From: an uncultured Streptococcus sp.
Lineage (GTDB): Bacteria; Bacillota; Bacilli; Lactobacillales; Streptococcaceae
Assembly: GCA_902479835.1 (NCBI GenBank)
Contig: CABSQC010000003.1
Span: forward strand, 1-18,061
Length of the DNA: 18,061 nucleotides
Reading direction: 5' to 3'
A program made the translations under genes and the position numbers. The notes beneath the pieces are model-generated. The model was not told the origin of the DNA. It was given only the letters and a program-made list of their open reading frames with translations, and searched no databases. Positions within the stretch are counted from its first letter, which is position 1. Each line of letters opens with the position of its first letter. Positions 7,473-16,774 of this stretch are shown here, in pieces.

Positions 7473-8183
7473 ATGATTCAAACCAGTTTGTTTTCCATTT
7501 CAGTATTCTTAGCGGGAGTTCTATCCTTTTTCTCCCCATGTATTTTGCCACTGATGCCAGTCTATGTAGGAATTCTATTGGATTCTGAACGAGTGAAAAC
7601 TGTTCGGATTTTTGGAAGAGATATTTCTTGGTATGGCCTGGTGAAGACTCTTTGTTTTATTGCAGGTCTATCAACTGTTTTCCTGATTCTAGGATACGGT
7701 GCAGGGGCCCTTGGCCAGGTGCTTTATGCTCCATGGTTTCGCTATCTGCTAGGAGGGATTGTGATCTTATTGGGAATCCATCAGATGGGCCTCATCAATC
7801 TTCAGCAACTCCAAAAACAAAAGAGTATCCAACTGAAGAAGGACGAAAAACGCAATGAATTCTTCAATGCTTTTCTGATAGGGGTCACCTTCAGTTTTGG
7901 TTGGACCCCTTGTGTCGGACCAGTTTTGAGTTCTGTTTTAGCCATTGCAGCTTCTGGAGGAAATGGTGCATTGCAAGGCGCTCTCCTGATGCTGGTCTAT
8001 ACATTAGGCTTGGCTCTGCCTTTCTTGCTTTTGGCCTTGGCTTCTAGCTGGGTTCTACAACATTTTGCTAAACTCAAGCCCCATATGGGAACCTTGAAAA
8101 AAATTGGTGGTGCCCTCATCATCTTGATGGGCATCTTGCTGATGCTAGGAAATCTTAATAGCCTCGCATCCCTGTTTCACTAA
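7473..8183 (+). CDS. ccdA: CcdA family thiol-disulfide electron carrier
   Basis: 236-residue polytopic membrane protein with about six hydrophobic segments. CcdA/DsbD-type proteins move electrons from cytoplasmic thioredoxin to an extracytoplasmic thioredoxin-fold partner. The two family cysteines are C23 in FFSPCILPLMP and C147 in FGWTPCVGP, each next to the characteristic prolines. The ribosome site GGGAGG (7460-7465) is strong. It is the first gene of a redox operon ending in msrAB, matching the pneumococcal ccdA1-etrx1-msrAB1 locus except for an extra lipoprotein gene. Its expected client is the thioredoxin-like lipoprotein at 8632-9195. Confidence 0.93.
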   Translation: MIQTSLFSISVFLAGVLSFFSPCILPLMPVYVGILLDSERVKTVRIFGRDISWYGLVKTLCFIAGLSTVFLILGYGAGALGQVLYAPWFRYLLGGIVILLGIHQMGLINLQQLQKQKSIQLKKDEKRNEFFNAFLIGVTFSFGWTPCVGPVLSSVLAIAASGGNGALQGALLMLVYTLGLALPFLLLALASSWVLQHFAKLKPHMGTLKKIGGALIILMGILLMLGNLNSLASLFH

Positions 8184-8209: not shown

Positions 8210-8578
8210 ATGAAAAAAATTCTTGCACTTTCTATTGCTACACTTAGCATCGTCACTTTAGCAGCTTGTTCTGGACAGAAATCAGATTCAGATATGAAAA
8301 AAACGGACGATAGTAGTATGATGAAGAAGGACGATATGAAGAAGGACGATATGAAGAAGGACGATATGAAGAAGGACGATATGAAGAAGGATGACATGAA
8401 GGATTCATCCATGTCCGATGATAAAATGAAAAAAGAAGACATGAAAGATTCATCTATGATGTCTGACAGCAGTTCTGAAATGAAGGACGACATGAAAAAA
8501 GATGAGATGAAATCTAGCGATTCAGAAATGAAAGATGAAAAGAGTGAATCATCTGATATGAAATCAGACAACAAATGA
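8210..8578 (+). CDS. Methionine-rich MxKDx-repeat lipoprotein
   Basis: 122-residue predicted lipoprotein. A type II signal peptide ends in LAAC with C20 as the lipidated residue. The 103-residue mature part is extreme in composition: 27 Asp, 26 Lys, 21 Ser, 18 Met and 6 Glu, with only one each of Cys, Gly, Gln, Thr and Asn, and no aromatic or large aliphatic residue other than Met. Residues 38-62 are five exact MKKDD pentapeptides; looser M-K-x-x and M-K-D repeats fill the rest. The pattern fits the M-x-K-D-x pentapeptide family of small secreted proteins known mainly from proteobacteria. It should be disordered and surface-anchored. It lies between ccdA and the thioredoxin gene, with ribosome site AAAGGAG at 8197-8203. 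Function is unknown; a methionine sink repaired by MsrAB, or metal binding, are guesses from composition and position. Confidence 0.85.
   Translation: MKKILALSIATLSIVTLAACSGQKSDSDMKKTDDSSMMKKDDMKKDDMKKDDMKKDDMKKDDMKDSSMSDDKMKKEDMKDSSMMSDSSSEMKDDMKKDEMKSSDSEMKDEKSESSDMKSDNK
8321..8395 (+). repeat. 15-bp in-frame tandem repeat, five copies
   Basis: Four identical copies of ATGAAGAAGGACGAT (8321-8335, 8336-8350, 8351-8365, 8366-8380) are followed by a fifth (8381-8395) differing only at two synonymous bases. Each encodes MKKDD. Near-identity at third positions points to recent expansion by slippage or unequal recombination, so copy number should vary between strains without breaking the frame. 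Confidence 0.95.
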
Positions 8579-8582
8579 AAGA

Positions 8583-8619
8583 AGGGAGAGGTCATCTGAG
8601 GATGACTTTCTCCTTATTT
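8583..8619 (+). terminator. Intra-operon hairpin (attenuator or processing site)
   Basis: GGAGAGGTCATC (8585-8596) pairs with GATGACTTTCTCC (8601-8613) with one bulged T and one G-T pair around a TGAG loop. It is followed by the imperfect T-run TTATTT. It lies between the lipoprotein stop and the thioredoxin start, so it may lower transcription of the downstream genes or protect the upstream mRNA end. Confidence 0.5.
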
Positions 8620-8620
8620 A

Positions 8621-8626
8621 AAGAGG
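8621..8626 (+). promoter_or_regulatory. Ribosome site fixing the thioredoxin lipoprotein start
   Basis: AAGAGG is 5 nt before the ATG at 8632 and 8 nt before the one at 8635. Both starts give an N-terminal signal peptide. The in-frame ATG at 8575 has no comparable site. Confidence 0.65.
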
Positions 8627-8631
8627 TAATA

Positions 8632-9195
8632 ATGATGAAGAAATTAGCTTTAGTAGCTGCAGGATTCTTGTGTACTGGACTTTTGGGGGCTTGCTCGAGT
8701 CAAGGAATGGCTACTTCCAATAAGGACATGAGCCAACAAACAGCCAAAGCTGGGGCTAGGCAACCATCTGGCAAGAAAGTGAAGGAGTTTAACCTGCAAG
8801 GAGTAGACGGTAAGACCTACCGCTTATCCGATTACAAGGGAAAGAAAGTTTACCTCAAATTTTGGGCTTCCTGGTGCTCAATCTGTCTTTCAACATTAGG
8901 CGACACAAATGATTTAGCAAAGGCAGAGGAGGGTAAGGATTATGTGGTCTTATCCGTTGTAGCTCCAACTTTTAATGGTGAAAAATCGGAAGCAGATTTC
9001 AAAAACTGGTACCAGTCTTTGGATTACAAGGATTTCCCGGTCTTGCTAGATAGTAAAGGGGAACTGCTAAAAGAGTATGGGATTCGTTCATATCCATCGG
9101 CGCTCTTTATCAATAGTGATGGGACTTTATCAAAGAGCCAGATAGGCTATATGAATAAAGAGGATATCCTCAAGACCCTAGAGAACATGCAGTAA
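8632..9195 (+). CDS. etrx1: Thioredoxin-like (TlpA/ResA type) surface lipoprotein
   Basis: 187-residue lipoprotein. The signal peptide has a lipobox LGAC with C21 lipidated, followed by a flexible linker to about residue 48 and a TlpA/ResA thioredoxin fold. The active site is W81-C82-S-I-C85 and the cis-proline is P155 in SYPSALF. Family role: it takes electrons from CcdA and reduces extracytoplasmic clients, here most likely MsrAB encoded next. The order and the CSIC motif match my recollection of pneumococcal Etrx1; the symbol is by analogy. The frame extends upstream to an ATG at 8575 overlapping the lipoprotein stop, but that would bury the signal peptide and lacks a ribosome site, so 8632 is used (8635 is equally possible). 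Confidence 0.9.
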   Translation: MMKKLALVAAGFLCTGLLGACSSQGMATSNKDMSQQTAKAGARQPSGKKVKEFNLQGVDGKTYRLSDYKGKKVYLKFWASWCSICLSTLGDTNDLAKAEEGKDYVVLSVVAPTFNGEKSEADFKNWYQSLDYKDFPVLLDSKGELLKEYGIRSYPSALFINSDGTLSKSQIGYMNKEDILKTLENMQ

Positions 9196-9207: not shown

Positions 9208-10329
9208 ATGGAAACAAAATGGAAACTCATTTCCATTCTTTTAGTGGGGCTATTTTGTTTTGGAATCTTTTTCCTTATCAAAGGATCCATGGCCTTGGAT
9301 ATATCAGATGCGACGACTGAGCAGATCAAAAAAGCATCGATGAGTCAGACTCCAGTAGCTAAAAAGGAAACAAATGAAACGGTTGATCCAAAGGATCAGC
9401 GTGAAATTTATTTGGCTGGTGGTTGCTTCTGGGGCGTAGAAGAATATTTCTCCCGTGTTCCAGGTGTGATCGATGCTGTATCAGGCTACGCCAATGGGAA
9501 GGGAGAAACGACCAAGTATGAATTGGTTCCTCAAACAGGCCATGCCGAAACAGTTCACATCACCTACAATGTCAAGCAGGTATCTCTGAAAGAATTGCTC
9601 CTGCATTATTTCCGGATTATCGACCCAACGTCGAAGAATCGTCAAGGAAACGATCAAGGGACTCAATACCGAACAGGTGTCTATTATGTCTCCCAAGAAG
9701 ACCTTCCAACCATTGACCAAGTCTTTGAAGAGGTAGCAAAAAAATACGACAAACCGTTAGCAGTGGAAAAAGAACCACTGAGCAATTTCATCCAGGCGGA
9801 AGACTACCACCAGGATTATCTAAAGAAACATCCAAATGGGTACTGCCATATCGATGTCAATCAGGCTTCTTATCCTGTTATTGATGCTAGTCGCTACTCT
9901 AAGCCAAGCGATGAGGAAATCAAAAAGAAATTATCTCCTGAGGAGTATGCGGTGACACAAAAAAATGATACCGAACGGGCCTTCTCCAATCGTTATTGGG
10001 ATCAGTTTGATGCCGGTATTTATGTAGATGTCGTGACTGGTGAGCCGCTCTTTTCCTCTAAGGATAAATTTGATTCGGGTTGTGGTTGGCCAAGTTTCAG
10101 TCGGCCTATTAGTCCTGATGTGGCGATTTATAAGGAGGATAAGAGTTTCAATATGACTCGGACAGAAGTTCGGAGTCGTGTGGGAAATTCCCATCTGGGC
10201 CATGTTTTTACCGATGGTCCCAAGGAAAAAGGCGGCCTTCGCTATTGCATCAATAGTTTGTCTATTACCTTCATTCCCAAAGCAGAAATGAAAGAAAAGG
10301 GCTACGGTTATTTATTAGACTATGTCTGA
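9208..10329 (+). CDS. msrAB: Membrane-anchored methionine sulfoxide reductase MsrA/MsrB fusion
   Basis: 373-residue fusion that reduces both stereoisomers of methionine sulfoxide outside the membrane. An uncleaved N-terminal anchor (about residues 6-24) leads through a linker to MsrA (about 65-215) with catalytic C73 in GGCFWG and a probable resolving C213 in GYCHI. MsrB follows (about 240-365) with C292 in SGCGWPSFS and catalytic C347 in RYCIN. No CxxC zinc pairs are seen in the MsrB half. The ribosome site AAGGAGG (9194-9200) overlaps the preceding stop codon. It ends the ccdA operon; its electrons are expected from the adjacent thioredoxin-like lipoprotein. Confidence 0.96.
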
Positions 10330-10387: not shown

Positions 10388-11122
10388 ATGTATGCGATCA
10401 TGATTGTGGAAGATGAAGAGCTTATCCGGCAGGGTCTGACTTCCTTAGTTGACTATGAACAGTTTGGAATGACTGTCATCAACCAGGCAGAAAATGGCCG
10501 TGAGGCCTGGGAGAAGTTTCAAGAGCAACCAGCCGATATCCTTCTAACCGATATCAATATGCCACAAATGAATGGCTTGGATCTGGCCCATCTCGTTAAA
10601 GAGCAATCACCATCTTGTCATATCATTTTTTTGACCGGTTATGATGACTTTGAGTTTGCGAGGAAAGCCATCAAGTTAGGTGCAGATGATTATTTGCTGA
10701 AGCCTTTTTCAAAAGATGATATTGAAGAGATGTTAGCAAAGGTGAAGGGAAAACTCGATCAAGAGCGAAAAAAGGCGCAAGTCGAAGATTTGGTCAGTCA
10801 TGGTTATTCGACTGACTTGGAAGAAGCCATTCATGCTCGTTTAGCAGATTCCCAGTTAACCCTGAAGGATTTGGCCTATCAACTTGGTTTCAGTCCCTCG
10901 TATCTAAGTGTATTGATCAAGAAAAAATTGGGACTCCCCTTCCAAGAATATCTCATCCAAGAGAGAATGAAGAAGGCTCAACTCTTACTTCTCACGACAG
11001 ATTTAAAGATTTATGAGATCGCCGATCAGGTTGGTTTTGAAGATATGAACTATTTTTCTCAACGCTTTAAGCAGGTTGTTGGGGTGACACCAAGGCAGTA
11101 CAAAAAAGGAGAGCATGAATGA
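10388..11122 (+). CDS. AraC-family response regulator (YesN type)
   Basis: 244-residue DNA-binding response regulator. The receiver domain spans about residues 1-120 with acidic pocket E8-D9-E10, phospho-acceptor D55 in LLTDINMP, T83 and K105 in LLKPF. A linker leads to an AraC-type double helix-turn-helix (about 145-242) ending in GVTPRQYKK. The GTG at 10379 also opens the frame, but the ATG at 10388 sits 6 nt after AGGTG and gives the usual MYxIxIVEDE start. It overlaps the kinase gene by 4 bp. Placed directly after msrAB, it matches pneumococcal TCS09 (RR09, also called ZmpR). Targets are not evident from the window; its own promoter is one candidate. Confidence 0.93.
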   Translation: MYAIMIVEDEELIRQGLTSLVDYEQFGMTVINQAENGREAWEKFQEQPADILLTDINMPQMNGLDLAHLVKEQSPSCHIIFLTGYDDFEFARKAIKLGADDYLLKPFSKDDIEEMLAKVKGKLDQERKKAQVEDLVSHGYSTDLEEAIHARLADSQLTLKDLAYQLGFSPSYLSVLIKKKLGLPFQEYLIQERMKKAQLLLLTTDLKIYEIADQVGFEDMNYFSQRFKQVVGVTPRQYKKGEHE

Positions 11123-12831
11123 AACGATATCCCTTGCTGATCCAGCTGGTCCTCTACTTTTTTCTCTTCATTCTCTTGCTGTTTGGTCTTATCGGTAGCC
11201 TTTACTATCAAACGAGTTCAGGGACGATCCGCCAGCAAACGGAGCGGACGACAAGAAATAGTATCGATCAAAGCAGTCAGTTTATCACCTCCTATCTAAA
11301 AAAATTAAAGCAGACCACGACGGTGCTTAGCAAAGAGCAGGCTATTCGCCAATTTGCCCAAGATAAGAGTGCGGATCAAAAAACGGTTCAGCACTTGATG
11401 CGAACGATGATTGAAACGGATCCGGACTTGGTCTCTGCGGTCTTGGTGACCAAGGATGGACGTCTGGTAGCGACAGATTCCAAAATCAGCATGCAGACTT
11501 CTTCAGATATGATGAATGAAAGTTGGTATCAAGAGGCGATTAAGGAAAGAGCCATGCCAGTTTTGACGCCAGCTCGAAAGGAATCCTTGACCTCGGAAAA
11601 AGAAAAATGGGTGGTTTCTATTACCCAAGAAGTGGTCGATCAGGCTGGTCAAAATCTCGGAGTAGTACGCTTGGATATTGGCTACGATAGCCTTCAGGCT
11701 TACTTGGATCACCTGCAACTAGGGAAGCAAGGCTTTAGTTTTATCATTAATCAAAAGCATGAGTTTGTCTATCATCCTAAAAAAGCGGTCTATTCCTCCA
11801 GCCAAGAAATGCAAGCCATGCAGCCCTATATTGCTGTGAAAGATGGTTATGCAAAAGGAGGGCAGAATTTTATCTATCAGGTTCCAATTCCAGATAGTGA
11901 TTGGACCTTGATTGGAGTGGCTTCACTTGAAGGACTTCAGATGCTGCAGTCGCAGCTCCTGTACTCTTTCATTGGCCTAGGATTACTAGCTTTGATCATG
12001 TGTTTGATGGGGATCGGCTTTGTTCTGCGTTTGTGGATCAAACCCTTACGAGACCTTCAGACCATCATTTTGAGGATTGGAGCAGGAGAAGCTCACGTGA
12101 GGGCTGTAGCCAAAGGATCTCCAGAATTGGTGGACCTCGCTCAAGCTTTTAATGCCATGTTGGACCAAATCGATAACCTCATGCAACAGGTTAAGGAAGA
12201 GGAGCAAAACGCGCGGCGTTATGAGTTGCGGGCACTTTCGGCTCAGATTAATCCGCATTTCCTCTACAATACCTTGGATACGATTGTCTGGATGGCGGAG
12301 TTTAATGATAGTCGGCGCGTGGTCAACATCACTAAGTCTCTGGCTCAATATTTTCGACTGGCTCTCAACCAAGGCCAGGAACAAATCCTGCTGAGAGATG
12401 AAATTGACCATGTCCGCCAGTATCTTTTCATTCAGAAGCAACGTTATGGAGAAAAGCTCAACTATGAAATTCTAGAAGATAAACGGTTGAGCGACTATCA
12501 GCTCCCCAAATTAGTGCTTCAACCCTTAGTGGAAAATGCGATTTACCATGGTATTAAGGAGATCGATCGGCCTGGTCTCATTCGAGTGACAACTGAAGTC
12601 AGTGGAGACTACGCTTGCGTATCGATTTTTGACAATGGACGAGGGTTTGACCGATCAGAATCAACAGCCCAAACCCTTCTTCGTTTAGGAGGTGTTGGCT
12701 TGAAAAATGTGGACCAACGATTGCGTCTTCAATTTGGCGAAGCCTATCATATGGAGATCGATTCTAAGGCCAATAGCTATACGAAAATCACTCTTTTTTT
12801 GCCCCTTTCATCATCTGATGAACATGTATAG
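11119..12831 (+). CDS. Sensor histidine kinase (YesM type)
   Basis: 570-residue membrane kinase. Membrane segment 1 (about residues 7-29) is followed by an extracellular Cache-like sensor region (about 30-277), membrane segment 2 (about 282-304), a HAMP linker (about 305-358), a His_kinase domain with phospho-His380 in QINPHFLYNTL, and an ATPase domain with N-box VENAIYHGI (471-479), D505-N-G-R-G509 and GVGLKN (525-530). Kinases of this class pair with AraC-type regulators and usually sense extracellular ligands such as sugars or peptides; the ligand here is unknown. Its start overlaps the regulator stop (ATGA), with ribosome site AAAGGAGAG just upstream. It matches the position of pneumococcal HK09 (ZmpS). 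The terminator stem begins in its stop codon. Confidence 0.93.
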   Translation: MKRYPLLIQLVLYFFLFILLLFGLIGSLYYQTSSGTIRQQTERTTRNSIDQSSQFITSYLKKLKQTTTVLSKEQAIRQFAQDKSADQKTVQHLMRTMIETDPDLVSAVLVTKDGRLVATDSKISMQTSSDMMNESWYQEAIKERAMPVLTPARKESLTSEKEKWVVSITQEVVDQAGQNLGVVRLDIGYDSLQAYLDHLQLGKQGFSFIINQKHEFVYHPKKAVYSSSQEMQAMQPYIAVKDGYAKGGQNFIYQVPIPDSDWTLIGVASLEGLQMLQSQLLYSFIGLGLLALIMCLMGIGFVLRLWIKPLRDLQTIILRIGAGEAHVRAVAKGSPELVDLAQAFNAMLDQIDNLMQQVKEEEQNARRYELRALSAQINPHFLYNTLDTIVWMAEFNDSRRVVNITKSLAQYFRLALNQGQEQILLRDEIDHVRQYLFIQKQRYGEKLNYEILEDKRLSDYQLPKLVLQPLVENAIYHGIKEIDRPGLIRVTTEVSGDYACVSIFDNGRGFDRSESTAQTLLRLGGVGLKNVDQRLRLQFGEAYHMEIDSKANSYTKITLFLPLSSSDEHV

Positions 12832-15198: not shown

Positions 15199-15227
15199 TT
15201 GACAAAGTCAGAAGCGGGAGCTATAAT
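15199..15227 (+). promoter_or_regulatory. Consensus promoter of the trpB T-box transcript
   Basis: TTGACA (15199-15204) and TATAAT (15222-15227) are exact consensus with a 17-bp spacer. The predicted start is about 15234, just before the T-box Stem I. Confidence 0.93.
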
Positions 15228-15233
15228 AACTTC

Positions 15234-15490
15234 AAGACATCAGAAAAGTAGAGATTTTTCTCACTTCCAGGGAGCTTGTGGTGATTGCGAACAAGCAGTG
15301 GTGAATCTTGAAATGGGCTGATGCGTTTATGATGATGAATTTGAAACAATAAAAATTCGGTGAGCACACCTTATCGTGCACCCTGTTGTTAGACAGGTCA
15401 GAGATGTAGGAGAAAAATAGCCTCCTACAATTGAGGTGGCACCGCGGTATCGAATCGTCCTCACACAGATTTTTCTGTGTGAGGTTTTTT
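15234..15490 (+). promoter_or_regulatory. Tryptophan T-box riboswitch
   Basis: A leader that reads tRNA charging. Stem I base: CATCAG (15238-15243) pairs with CTGATG (15318-15323). The upper arm holds GCTTGT (15274-15279) paired with ACAAGC (15291-15296). The specifier codon is read as TGG (15314-15316), followed by a purine and then the stem base, the expected place. A later hairpin is GTAGGAG (15406-15412) with CTCCTAC (15422-15428). The T-box core GGTGGCACCGCGG is at 15435-15447. In the antiterminator TGAGG (15432-15436) pairs with CCTCA (15459-15463), the same bases that start the terminator stem. Uncharged tRNA-Trp should favour antitermination and trpB expression. Confidence 0.93.
15459..15490 (+). 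terminator. T-box regulated terminator
   Basis: CCTCACACAG (15459-15468) pairs perfectly with CTGTGTGAGG (15475-15484), followed by six T. It competes with the antiterminator for CCTCA. Confidence 0.93.
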
Positions 15491-15586: not shown

Positions 15587-16774
15587 ATGACAGAAACAAA
15601 AGGCTATTTCGGACAATTTGGTGGATCTTTCGTACCAGAACCCATTCAAAACTTGCTCAATCAATTAGAGGAAACCTTTGAACAATATAAAAATGATCCA
15701 GAATTTATCGCAGAATACAAACATTATTTGAAAGATTACTCTGGCCGGGAAACACCGCTCTACTTTGCGGAAAGTTTAACAGAGCATTTAGGTGGGGCAA
15801 AAATTTATTTGAAGCGCGAAGACTTGAATCACCTAGGTTCGCATAAATTGAATAACGTCTTGGGGCAAATCCTCTTGGCCAAACGCATGGGTAAAACGCG
15901 CGTGATTGCTGAAACAGGAGCCGGTCAACACGGTGTGGCTACAGCAGCAGCGGCAGCTAAGTTTGGCATGGCCTGTGATGTCTACATGGGGGCAGAAGAT
16001 GTGGAACGCCAACGCTTGAATGTCTTCCGCATGGAAATGATGGGGGCAACCGTCCATGCGGTTGAAACCGGTACTAAGACCTTGAAAGATGCCGTTGATG
16101 CGGCGTTTGGAGCATGGATGGCGGATCTGGATGCCTTTTACGTTTTGGGTTCTGCTGTTGGACCTCACCCTTACCCAACCATTGTGCATGAATTCCAAAA
16201 AGTAATCAGTGAAGAATCTAAACGTCAAATCTTGGAAAAAGAAGGCCGTTTGCCGGATTATGTGATTGCCTGTGTCGGTGGTGGCTCTAATGCCATTGGT
16301 GCCTTTTCTGAATATGTCGCAGAAGAGGAAGTCGGCTTGATTGGGGTAGAAGCAGCTGGACATGGCTTGGACACCGATCAACACGCAGCGACCATGACCA
16401 AAGGGACTATCGGTGTGGTTGATGGTATGAAGACCTATGCAGTCTTTGGCGAAGATGGAAAAGTAGCGCCAGTGTACTCGATCTCTGCTGGTTTGGACTA
16501 CCCAGGGGTTGGTCCAGAGCATGCTTTCTTTAAAGATTCTGGTCGTGTCGAATATGTAGCAGCGACAGATGATGAAGCAGTAGAAGCTCTTCTTCTTCTC
16601 AGTAAGACAGAAGGGATCCTCCCAGCCATTGAAAGCTCACACGCGATTGCGGAAGCTGTCAAACGTGCTCCACAATTGGATAAAGACAAGATCATCATCA
16701 TCAATGTTTCCGGACGTGGGGACAAGGACGTAGCTGCCATCGCTGATTATCTAGAAGCGAAGGTTGCAAAGTAA
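15587..16774 (+). CDS. trpB: Tryptophan synthase beta chain (stand-alone)
   Basis: 395-residue PLP enzyme that joins indole and L-serine to give L-tryptophan. The key residues stand at the same positions as in the enteric enzyme: K87 (Schiff base, in [10 protein letters not shown]), E109 (AETGAGQHG) and the phosphate-binding GGGSN at 231-235. Sequence and length are of the standard TrpB1 class that normally pairs with TrpA. No other trp gene adjoins it: the T-box leader is directly upstream and comC converges 7 bp downstream. The ribosome site is AGAGGA (15574-15579). Either trpA and the rest are elsewhere in the genome, or this cell makes tryptophan only by salvaging indole. Confidence 0.97.

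What the first reader, a model, noticed from the sequence alone, without database searches (positions are those of the whole stretch)
8210..8578. Methionine-rich MxKDx lipoprotein embedded in the methionine-repair operon
The mature protein is 18 Met in 103 residues (about 17%), with almost only Lys, Asp, Ser and Glu besides. It sits between ccdA and the thioredoxin-like lipoprotein that should feed MsrAB. The pneumococcal version of the locus, as I recall it, has no such gene. A flexible, surface-anchored, Met-dense chain next to MsrAB could act as a sacrificial oxidant sink (for example against hypochlorous acid or hydrogen peroxide made by the streptococcus itself), as an oxidation sensor, or as a metal binder through Met/Asp. 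This would be a closed cycle: lipoprotein oxidised, then reduced by MsrAB, Etrx and CcdA. The role is inference.
Basis: partly seen in the sequence, partly recalled or inferred. Interest (0 to 1): 0.78.

Follow-up and report, generated by a model that had tools for sequence, protein, structure and literature searches.

The report
Methionine-rich streptococcal repair-operon lipoprotein
A small, floppy, methionine-packed surface protein is encoded among the genes of a methionine-repair pathway in many streptococci, and in others a similar segment is built into the pathway's own thioredoxin, which suggests a rechargeable shield against oxidants that the pneumococcus lacks.

Summary
In detail: 8210-8578 encodes a 122-aa lipoprotein (X) whose mature chain has 18 Met in 103 residues, between ccdA and the thioredoxin lipoprotein gene etrx, upstream of msrAB. 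X is under purifying selection (pN/pS about 0.12), probably disordered, and below cut-off for every named family tried. In 284 genus genomes all 50 strong matches lie in this slot. New: many other streptococci, and one genome of another family, have no separate X; instead Etrx carries a Met-rich N-terminal linker (44-107 residues where parsed); some loci have both. Paralogous thioredoxin lipoproteins have Met-poor linkers (0 of 15 unique). On a 64-row MsrAB tree the module needs four changes and is absent from the pneumococcus/mitis clade. Met spacing is 5-6 and avoids MxM/MxxM. Best reading: a membrane-anchored, MsrAB-recharged methionine sink, a Gram-positive, thioredoxin-coupled counterpart of the MrpX/BcrX peptides beside MsrPQ. 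Association is shown; oxidation and recycling are inferred.

The parts
8210..8578 (+). X: Met-rich MxKDx-style lipoprotein, 122 aa
   Evidence: purifying selection; AlphaFold mean pLDDT 54, pTM 0.12, (fits disorder, no proof of it)
8210..8266 (+). lipoprotein signal peptide of X (residues 1-19; lipobox LAA-C)
   Evidence: sequence, read by pattern; no experiment
8321..8401 (+). 15-bp tandem array encoding MKKDD x 5; the longest run of MKK[DE][DN] is 0-5 copies in 53 loci compared (window included), the window having the most
7473..8183 (+). ccdA (DsbD_TM family electron-transfer membrane protein)
   Evidence: PF02683 69.4 bits, PF13386 46.3 bits
8588..8609 (+). intercistronic hairpin between X and etrx, seen in the sanguinis/parasanguinis clade; possible attenuator or mRNA 3'-end stabiliser
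   Evidence: 5 terminator-like sites in the region against 3.2 expected; 9 named pairs on 20 sequences, 93% of cells paired, covariation score reached by 0 of 500 shuffles, but only 1 pair with changes on both sides, which 307 of 500 shuffles also reach: modest support
8635..9195 (+). etrx: thioredoxin-like lipoprotein (WASWCSIC) with a short linker holding 2 Met
9208..10329 (+). msrAB: MsrA-MsrB fusion with a hydrophobic N-terminus (likely membrane anchor, by eye)
10388..11122 (+). response regulator, AraC-type (YesN/RR09-like by position and domains)
   Evidence: an RR homologue lies directly downstream of msrAB in 63 of 80 named loci
11119..12831 (+). sensor histidine kinase with dCache domain (YesM/HK09-like by position and domains)

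Best explanation
X is a membrane-anchored, intrinsically disordered methionine reservoir that works as a renewable oxidant sink for the extracytoplasmic CcdA-Etrx-MsrAB pathway. Proposed steps: (1) X is exported, lipidated and stays on the outer face of the membrane, reaching into the wall (predicted). (2) Its evenly spaced, exposed Met residues react with hypohalous acids and similar oxidants before essential surface proteins do (inferred). (3) MsrAB on the same membrane reduces both MetSO epimers; Etrx and CcdA return electrons from the cytoplasm (the relay is published for S. gordonii and S. pneumoniae; X as its substrate is inferred). (4) In species without a separate X, a Met-rich tail on Etrx plays the same role in cis (the fusion is shown, its role inferred).
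For: Location: 49 strong genus matches lie 621-658 bp upstream of msrAB on the same strand, 49 of 49 tested, and G001 has the same order; 9 more divergent copies occupy the same slot. Met-rich Etrx linker without a separate X: 6 of 20 fetched loci, 15 of 30 further genus genomes that had given no clear X match, and G084 and G580. Both forms: L103, L110, L112, L113, L145, L148, and more weakly L108. Paralogous thioredoxin lipoproteins: 0 of 15 unique linkers Met-rich. pN/pS about 0.12. No confident fold. In 12 X and 24 fused non-redundant segments Met is 8-24% although repeat units change; Met-Met distances 5 and 6 are in excess and 2 and 3 nearly absent; no aromatics in any of the 36. Precedent: Brucella BcrX, an MXKDX-repeat protein made from an HOCl-induced operon with MsrPQ; the triple mutant is HOCl-sensitive. 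The S. gordonii relay genes are needed against H2O2 and MetSO. Met-rich proteins from other bacteria are oxidised by H2O2 and their gel mobility fully restored by an MsrB-MsrA fusion (passages).
Against: No biochemical or genetic result on X. In the Brucella precedent all three operon genes were removed together, so the peptide's own share is not shown there. The mitis/pneumococcus/infantis clade and L162-165, L171, L176 have little or no Met-rich segment. Abundance, decisive for a stoichiometric sink, is unknown. Met-Asp repeats also occur on a fasciclin-like lipoprotein (recognised by eye) with no msr or ccdA match nearby (L158), so such linkers need not mean Msr. The spacing test treats related, repetitive segments as independent, which inflates its z values.
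Confidence: 0.6

Rival explanations
1. Docking tail or spacer: the Met-rich chain keeps Etrx and MsrAB together at the membrane, the Met side chains serving as a weak substrate-like dock, and bulk oxidant scavenging is incidental.
For: Occurs fused to Etrx, as a domain that brings partners together would; no confident fold, so probably flexible.
Against: A tether does not need 15-20% Met, nor about 100 residues; free X is not covalently joined to another protein; repeat number varies between loci.
Confidence: 0.2
2. Oxidation sensor: MetSO formation in X signals to the dCache histidine kinase encoded downstream, which controls the operon.
For: An RR homologue follows msrAB in 63 of 80 named loci; it was not found in 17 (one of which, L065, has only 84 bases to look in), and all 17 also lack X. 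Overexpressed YesN induces ccdA1-etrx1-msrAB2 in pneumococcus (passages).
Against: That regulation exists in pneumococcus, which has no X, and 31 of the 63 named loci with the RR have no X.
Confidence: 0.08
3. Metal binder or metallochaperone (copper or silver through Met, others through Asp).
For: Met and Asp are both abundant; 6 of 24 fused linkers contain His, one of them (L182) eight.
Against: Only 1 of 12 X representatives has a His and none has a Cys beyond the lipid anchor; Met pairs at distance 2 and 3 occur 5 and 6 times against 58 and 57 expected over all 36 segments, the reverse of MxM/MxxM copper motifs (motifs recalled).
Confidence: 0.05
4. Neutral low-complexity gene driven by repeat slippage.
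For: 15-bp array, copy number varies; one genome (G151) carries a broken copy.
Against: pN/pS about 0.12 with abundant synonymous change; fixed location; conserved signal peptide and a nearly invariant S35-S36-M37 segment.
Confidence: 0.03

Closest known systems
MrpX (Azospira suillum) / BcrX (Brucella melitensis), MXKDX-repeat peptides beside MsrPQ
   Same: Secreted, Met-rich, MXKDX-style repeats, gene next to an extracytoplasmic Met-sulfoxide reductase; proposed sacrificial HOCl scavenger (MrpX known only from citing passages and recall)
   Different: X is a lipid-anchored Gram-positive protein; its reductase is the thioredoxin-driven MsrAB, not MsrPQ; its likely regulator is a YesNM-type two-component system, not an ECF sigma factor (inferred from neighbours); forms fused to the thioredoxin exist; homology to MrpX was not tested
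TIGR02953 penta_MxKDx
   Same: Same repeat style; weak match over residues 37-83, E 1.6e-5
   Different: 24.7 bits against a cut-off of 41
CcdA-Etrx-MsrAB pathway (S. pneumoniae etrx1 operon; S. gordonii Sgo_1177/MsrAB)
   Same: Same operon core; a two-component pair next to it
   Different: The gene lists in the passages seen do not include X; pneumococcus lacks it
PilB-type thioredoxin-MsrA-MsrB fusion (NF010625; the name PilB is recalled)
   Same: Etrx and MsrAB match adjoining parts of this model (9-171 and 185-520)
   Different: Separate proteins here; whether members of that model have a Met-rich segment was not examined
Met-rich proteins used as Msr assay substrates (BMC Biochem 2012, PMC3514235)
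   Same: Met-dense, mostly Cys-free, reducible by Msr (passages)
   Different: Proteins of other organisms; the words Streptococcus and operon do not occur in that text

Membership tests
TIGR02953 pentapeptide MXKDX repeat protein | whole-protein score at or above curated cut-off (41 bits) | tested here: not met
   24.7 bits
TIGR02953 pentapeptide MXKDX repeat protein | N-terminal signal sequence followed by five-residue Met repeats (definition recalled) | tested here: met
   lipoprotein signal by pattern, MKKDD x 5, Met-Met distance 5 in excess
MrpX/BcrX-type sacrificial peptide | gene beside an extracytoplasmic Met-sulfoxide reductase | tested here: met
   the reductase is MsrAB instead of MsrPQ, its surface location is from published relatives
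MrpX/BcrX-type sacrificial peptide | Met oxidised by HOCl and reduced again by the partner reductase | not testable with these tools
   needs purified proteins and mass spectrometry
MrpX/BcrX-type sacrificial peptide | common descent with MrpX | not tested
   low-complexity repeats; the MrpX sequence was not compared
CcdA-Etrx-MsrAB operon | ccdA, thioredoxin lipoprotein and msrAB contiguous on one strand | tested here: met
   X is inserted between the first two
CcdA-Etrx-MsrAB operon | co-transcription including X | not testable with these tools
   a review reports PCR hints of one long message for the S. gordonii cluster (passage); X is not named in the passages seen
Met-motif copper-binding proteins | MxM/MxxM or His/Met clusters (recalled) | tested here: not met

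The most novel reading that the evidence does not exclude
Streptococci and some relatives carry a rechargeable methionine brush on the outside of the membrane, found in two interchangeable forms: a free lipoprotein, or a tail fused to the thioredoxin that feeds MsrAB. In the fused form oxidant trap and electron supply are one molecule. The module is old in the genus and was lost in the pneumococcus/mitis clade, so a main model organism of this pathway lacks what may be a main natural MsrAB substrate.
Probability: 0.45. Interest if true: 0.8.

Novelty: new variant of a known kind. Interest (0 to 1): 0.63.

Why it matters
What surface MsrAB mainly repairs in Gram-positive bacteria is, as far as I know, open. 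A dedicated Met-rich partner would make the question directly testable and would make MsrAB the recharger of an antioxidant as well as a repair enzyme. It would extend the MrpX/MsrPQ idea to a different lineage, reductase and electron source, and it offers a natural reporter of surface methionine oxidation. It also flags that the published S. gordonii ccdA1 and sgo_1177 mutants flank a Met-rich gene that the passages seen do not mention.

Tried and rejected
The window's own assembly is not held, so relatives were searched by handle. The TIGR02953 search of six genomes rang nowhere, controls included, and is uninformative. PHROGs gave five weak matches of unknown function, all starting at the signal peptide. 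Two fetched genus matches, L116 and L117, are by eye a solute-binding lipoprotein and a repeat-rich secreted protein with no msr or ccdA match nearby. The sensor, metal and neutral readings were considered and set aside for the reasons given. H2O2 production was not compared with the presence of X.

Slips and dropped rows: my lipobox pattern picked a wrong 356-aa ORF as X for L015 and L016; one search shows the true X. In one search the 'one change' count rests on rows partly chosen because they had matched X, with 25 rows from genomes without a clear X match, gives four changes and is the one used. In one search six pneumococcus-type loci passed a loose threshold (4 Met in 30 residues); I do not count them as fused. 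In one search three Etrx rows (L107, L176, L179) and three paralogue rows (L247, L254, L255) could not be parsed and were left out. About 30 of the 97 genus genomes with matches have only weak ones (E 3e-5 to 1e-3) and were not looked at one by one. In one search 156 of 395 order genomes matched at E 1e-3 or better and the list was cut; outside the genus I followed only L145, L148, L149/L158 and L150.

Full report
What is there. The ORF at 8210-8578 encodes a 122-aa lipoprotein. After the signal peptide the chain is 103 residues with 18 Met; Asp, Lys, Ser and Glu make up 80 of the rest. Background ORFs from the nearest held genome average 2.1% Met, maximum 6.3% (352 ORFs). Part of the chain is an MKKDD x 5 array from a 15-bp DNA repeat. 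It matches no Pfam family above cut-off; the nearest curated model is TIGR02953 penta_MxKDx, below its cut-off (24.7 of 41 bits). AlphaFold on a 19-row alignment gives no confident structure (mean pLDDT 54, pTM 0.12), which fits disorder but does not prove it. It is a constrained gene: 35 distinct CDS have pN 0.073 and pS 0.617 in gap-free mature codons.

Where it lies. Order in the window: ccdA, X, etrx, msrAB, response regulator, histidine kinase. In the 80 named Streptococcus loci kept as nearest by MsrAB, 32 have X between ccdA and etrx: the parasanguinis, australis, cristatus, sanguinis, gordonii and sinensis kinds and their relatives, L030 (a short one, 44 mature residues with 6 Met), S. 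cuniculi and S. massiliensis. The other 48 have none: mitis, oralis, pneumoniae and infantis kinds. Among 284 genus genomes, 97 matched X at E 1e-3 or better. Of the 50 strong ones (E 1e-16 or better), 49 lie 621-658 bp upstream of msrAB on the same strand and the 50th, G001, has the same order. Of 20 loci fetched mostly from weaker or odd matches, 9 have X in the same slot, 6 have only the fused form below, 3 belong to the strong set and 2 are unrelated. The remaining weak matches were not examined singly.

The fused form. In loci L104, L107, L109, L111, L114 and L115 no separate X exists, but Etrx carries a Met-rich linker between its lipid Cys and its thioredoxin domain; most of these linkers resemble the start of X letter by letter (for example DMKKSDESAMMKKDEKMSDEKK in L109). 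L103, L110, L112, L113 and, from another family of the order, L145 and L148 have both forms. To avoid choosing only positives I took 30 genus genomes that have msrAB but had given no clear X match: 15 have Met-rich Etrx linkers (8-23% Met where parsed), 2 have a separate X that the first search missed (L178, and L184, where ccdA was not seen in the stretch held), 6 have little or none, 2 are mitis-type, 1 has no intact Etrx ORF and 4 have no etrx beside msrAB. L179 was read from an internal start only. Named proteins of the fused kind include those of S. marmotae, S. cuniculi, S. respiraculi, S. azizii and S. oricebi. As control, 15 unique linkers of paralogous thioredoxin lipoproteins, from 17 loci whose genomes or species carry X or a Met-rich Etrx, have 0-3 Met; none reaches 4 Met and 8%. 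Of 104 unique linkers of msrAB-linked Etrx, which include many from species with X or with neither form, 30 do, 27 if at least 28 residues long.

History. On a 64-row MsrAB tree (careful method) the presence of a Met-rich module in either form needs four changes, and separate X alone needs five. The root is not inferred, but the pattern fits an old module lost in the mitis/pneumococcus clade and in three other places (L162-165, L171, L176). L154 and L155, wider stretches of the other-family loci, fall in one strongly supported group with 11 streptococcal rows, which suggests transfer of the operon (inference). In 398 genomes drawn from the phylum, three matched at E 1e-6 or better, two of them Streptococcus and one at a contig edge.

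What the chain looks like it does. In 12 non-redundant X and 24 fused segments, Met pairs at distance 5 and 6 are in excess (121 and 91 against about 55 and 54 expected) and pairs at 2 and 3 nearly absent (5 and 6 against 58 and 57); none of the 36 has an aromatic residue. One X and six fused linkers have His, and two fused linkers as cut hold a second Cys. Repeat units differ between lineages (MKKDD, MSDDK, MKDDK, MDDKK) while Met density and spacing persist. The segments are related and repetitive, so the z values overstate significance. This fits a chain that keeps each Met separate and exposed. It does not fit copper clusters (motifs recalled).

Mechanism. Shown by others: MsrAB, two thioredoxin lipoproteins and two CcdA proteins form a reducing pathway against H2O2 and MetSO in S. 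gordonii (PMC7034828, abstract and passages) and a like one in pneumococcus (PMC3914529, passages); overexpressed YesN, whose genes lie just beyond msrAB2 by locus tag, induces the operon in pneumococcus (PMC11034029, passages); in group A Streptococcus the ccdA-tlpA-msrAB operon is up in strains that survive H2O2 and NaOCl better, and deleting msrAB lowers H2O2 resistance (PMC11238559, passages). Inferred: X is oxidised first and recharged by that chain. The precedent is BcrX/MrpX (PMC8315932, passages and section 6; the MrpX paper is not held). There a mutant of the whole three-gene operon is sensitive to HOCl, not to H2O2 (the latter as data not shown), so I expect hypohalous acid to be the relevant oxidant here too; a streptococcus making H2O2 would meet it where host peroxidases are present (inference).

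Expression. A hairpin follows the X stop codon in the sanguinis/parasanguinis clade (8588-8609). On 20 sequences 93% of cells of the 9 pairs I named are paired and 0 of 500 shuffles reach the covariation score, but only 1 pair has changes on both sides and 307 of 500 shuffles do as well on that measure; RNAalifold's own structure has 2 such pairs of 9. It was not seen next to the more divergent X genes. A review reports that the S. gordonii cluster is down in an abpA mutant in a gradient along the genes and suggests polarity or attenuation (PMC12650345, passages). A sink should outnumber its reductase, so partial termination after X would make sense; this is untested.

Literature gap. Searches: MXKDX (3 papers, Brucella and Asaia); SGO_1178 (0); methionine-rich with Streptococcus sanguinis (1, off topic); methionine-rich with lipoprotein, Streptococcus and methionine sulfoxide (4); a five-term search (13 holding at least four terms). 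No listing names X; only some listed papers were opened, as passages. The S. gordonii paper describes a five-gene operon (two-component pair, ccdA1, sgo_1177, msrAB), and the string 1178 does not occur in its main text, while the S. gordonii DD07 locus L029 has X between ccdA and etrx. That X is SGO_1178 is inferred from numbering; the paper's supplementary figure was not seen. Subscription papers were not searched.

Verdict. The idea (Met-rich sink plus Msr) is known; notable are the new lineage, the lipid anchor, the thioredoxin-MsrAB partner and above all the fused form. Interest 0.63.

Noticed in passing
8588-8609 (+): Hairpin between X and etrx shared by the sanguinis/parasanguinis clade; possible attenuator.
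   Followed up: partly
15226-15465 (+): T-box leader (RF00230, 106.7 bits) upstream of an ORF at 15587 that looks like tryptophan synthase beta (by eye).
   Followed up: no
P0048: A thioredoxin lipoprotein of actinobacterial look (by eye) with its own Met-rich MSDDKMTDKAM linker, perhaps an independent fusion.
   Followed up: no
L158:4554-5261 (-): Fasciclin-like lipoprotein (by eye) with a TDDEM/ADDEM repeat linker and no msr or ccdA match nearby: Met-Asp repeats occur elsewhere too.
   Followed up: partly
L118, L161 (genome G151): X is broken in one close genome; signal and C-terminal parts are not in one open frame.
   Followed up: partly
L160 (genome G001): msrAB and the response regulator each match in two overlapping pieces, so both look frame-broken or mis-assembled there.
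   Followed up: no
L031, L064-L077, L079, L080: Infantis-type loci show no ccdA beside etrx and no response regulator after msrAB (L065, L074 and L076 hold less downstream sequence); most carry a long ORF upstream of etrx.
   Followed up: no
L159:1-254: Met-rich repeat ORF at a contig edge in a distant genome of the phylum, context not available.
   Followed up: no
P0012: Database protein joining the X N-terminus to the ccdA C-terminus, perhaps a duplication or assembly junction at a short shared word.
   Followed up: no
8575-8634 (+): The longest etrx ORF starts at an ATG overlapping the X stop codon, which would put 19-20 residues before the lipoprotein signal.
   Followed up: no
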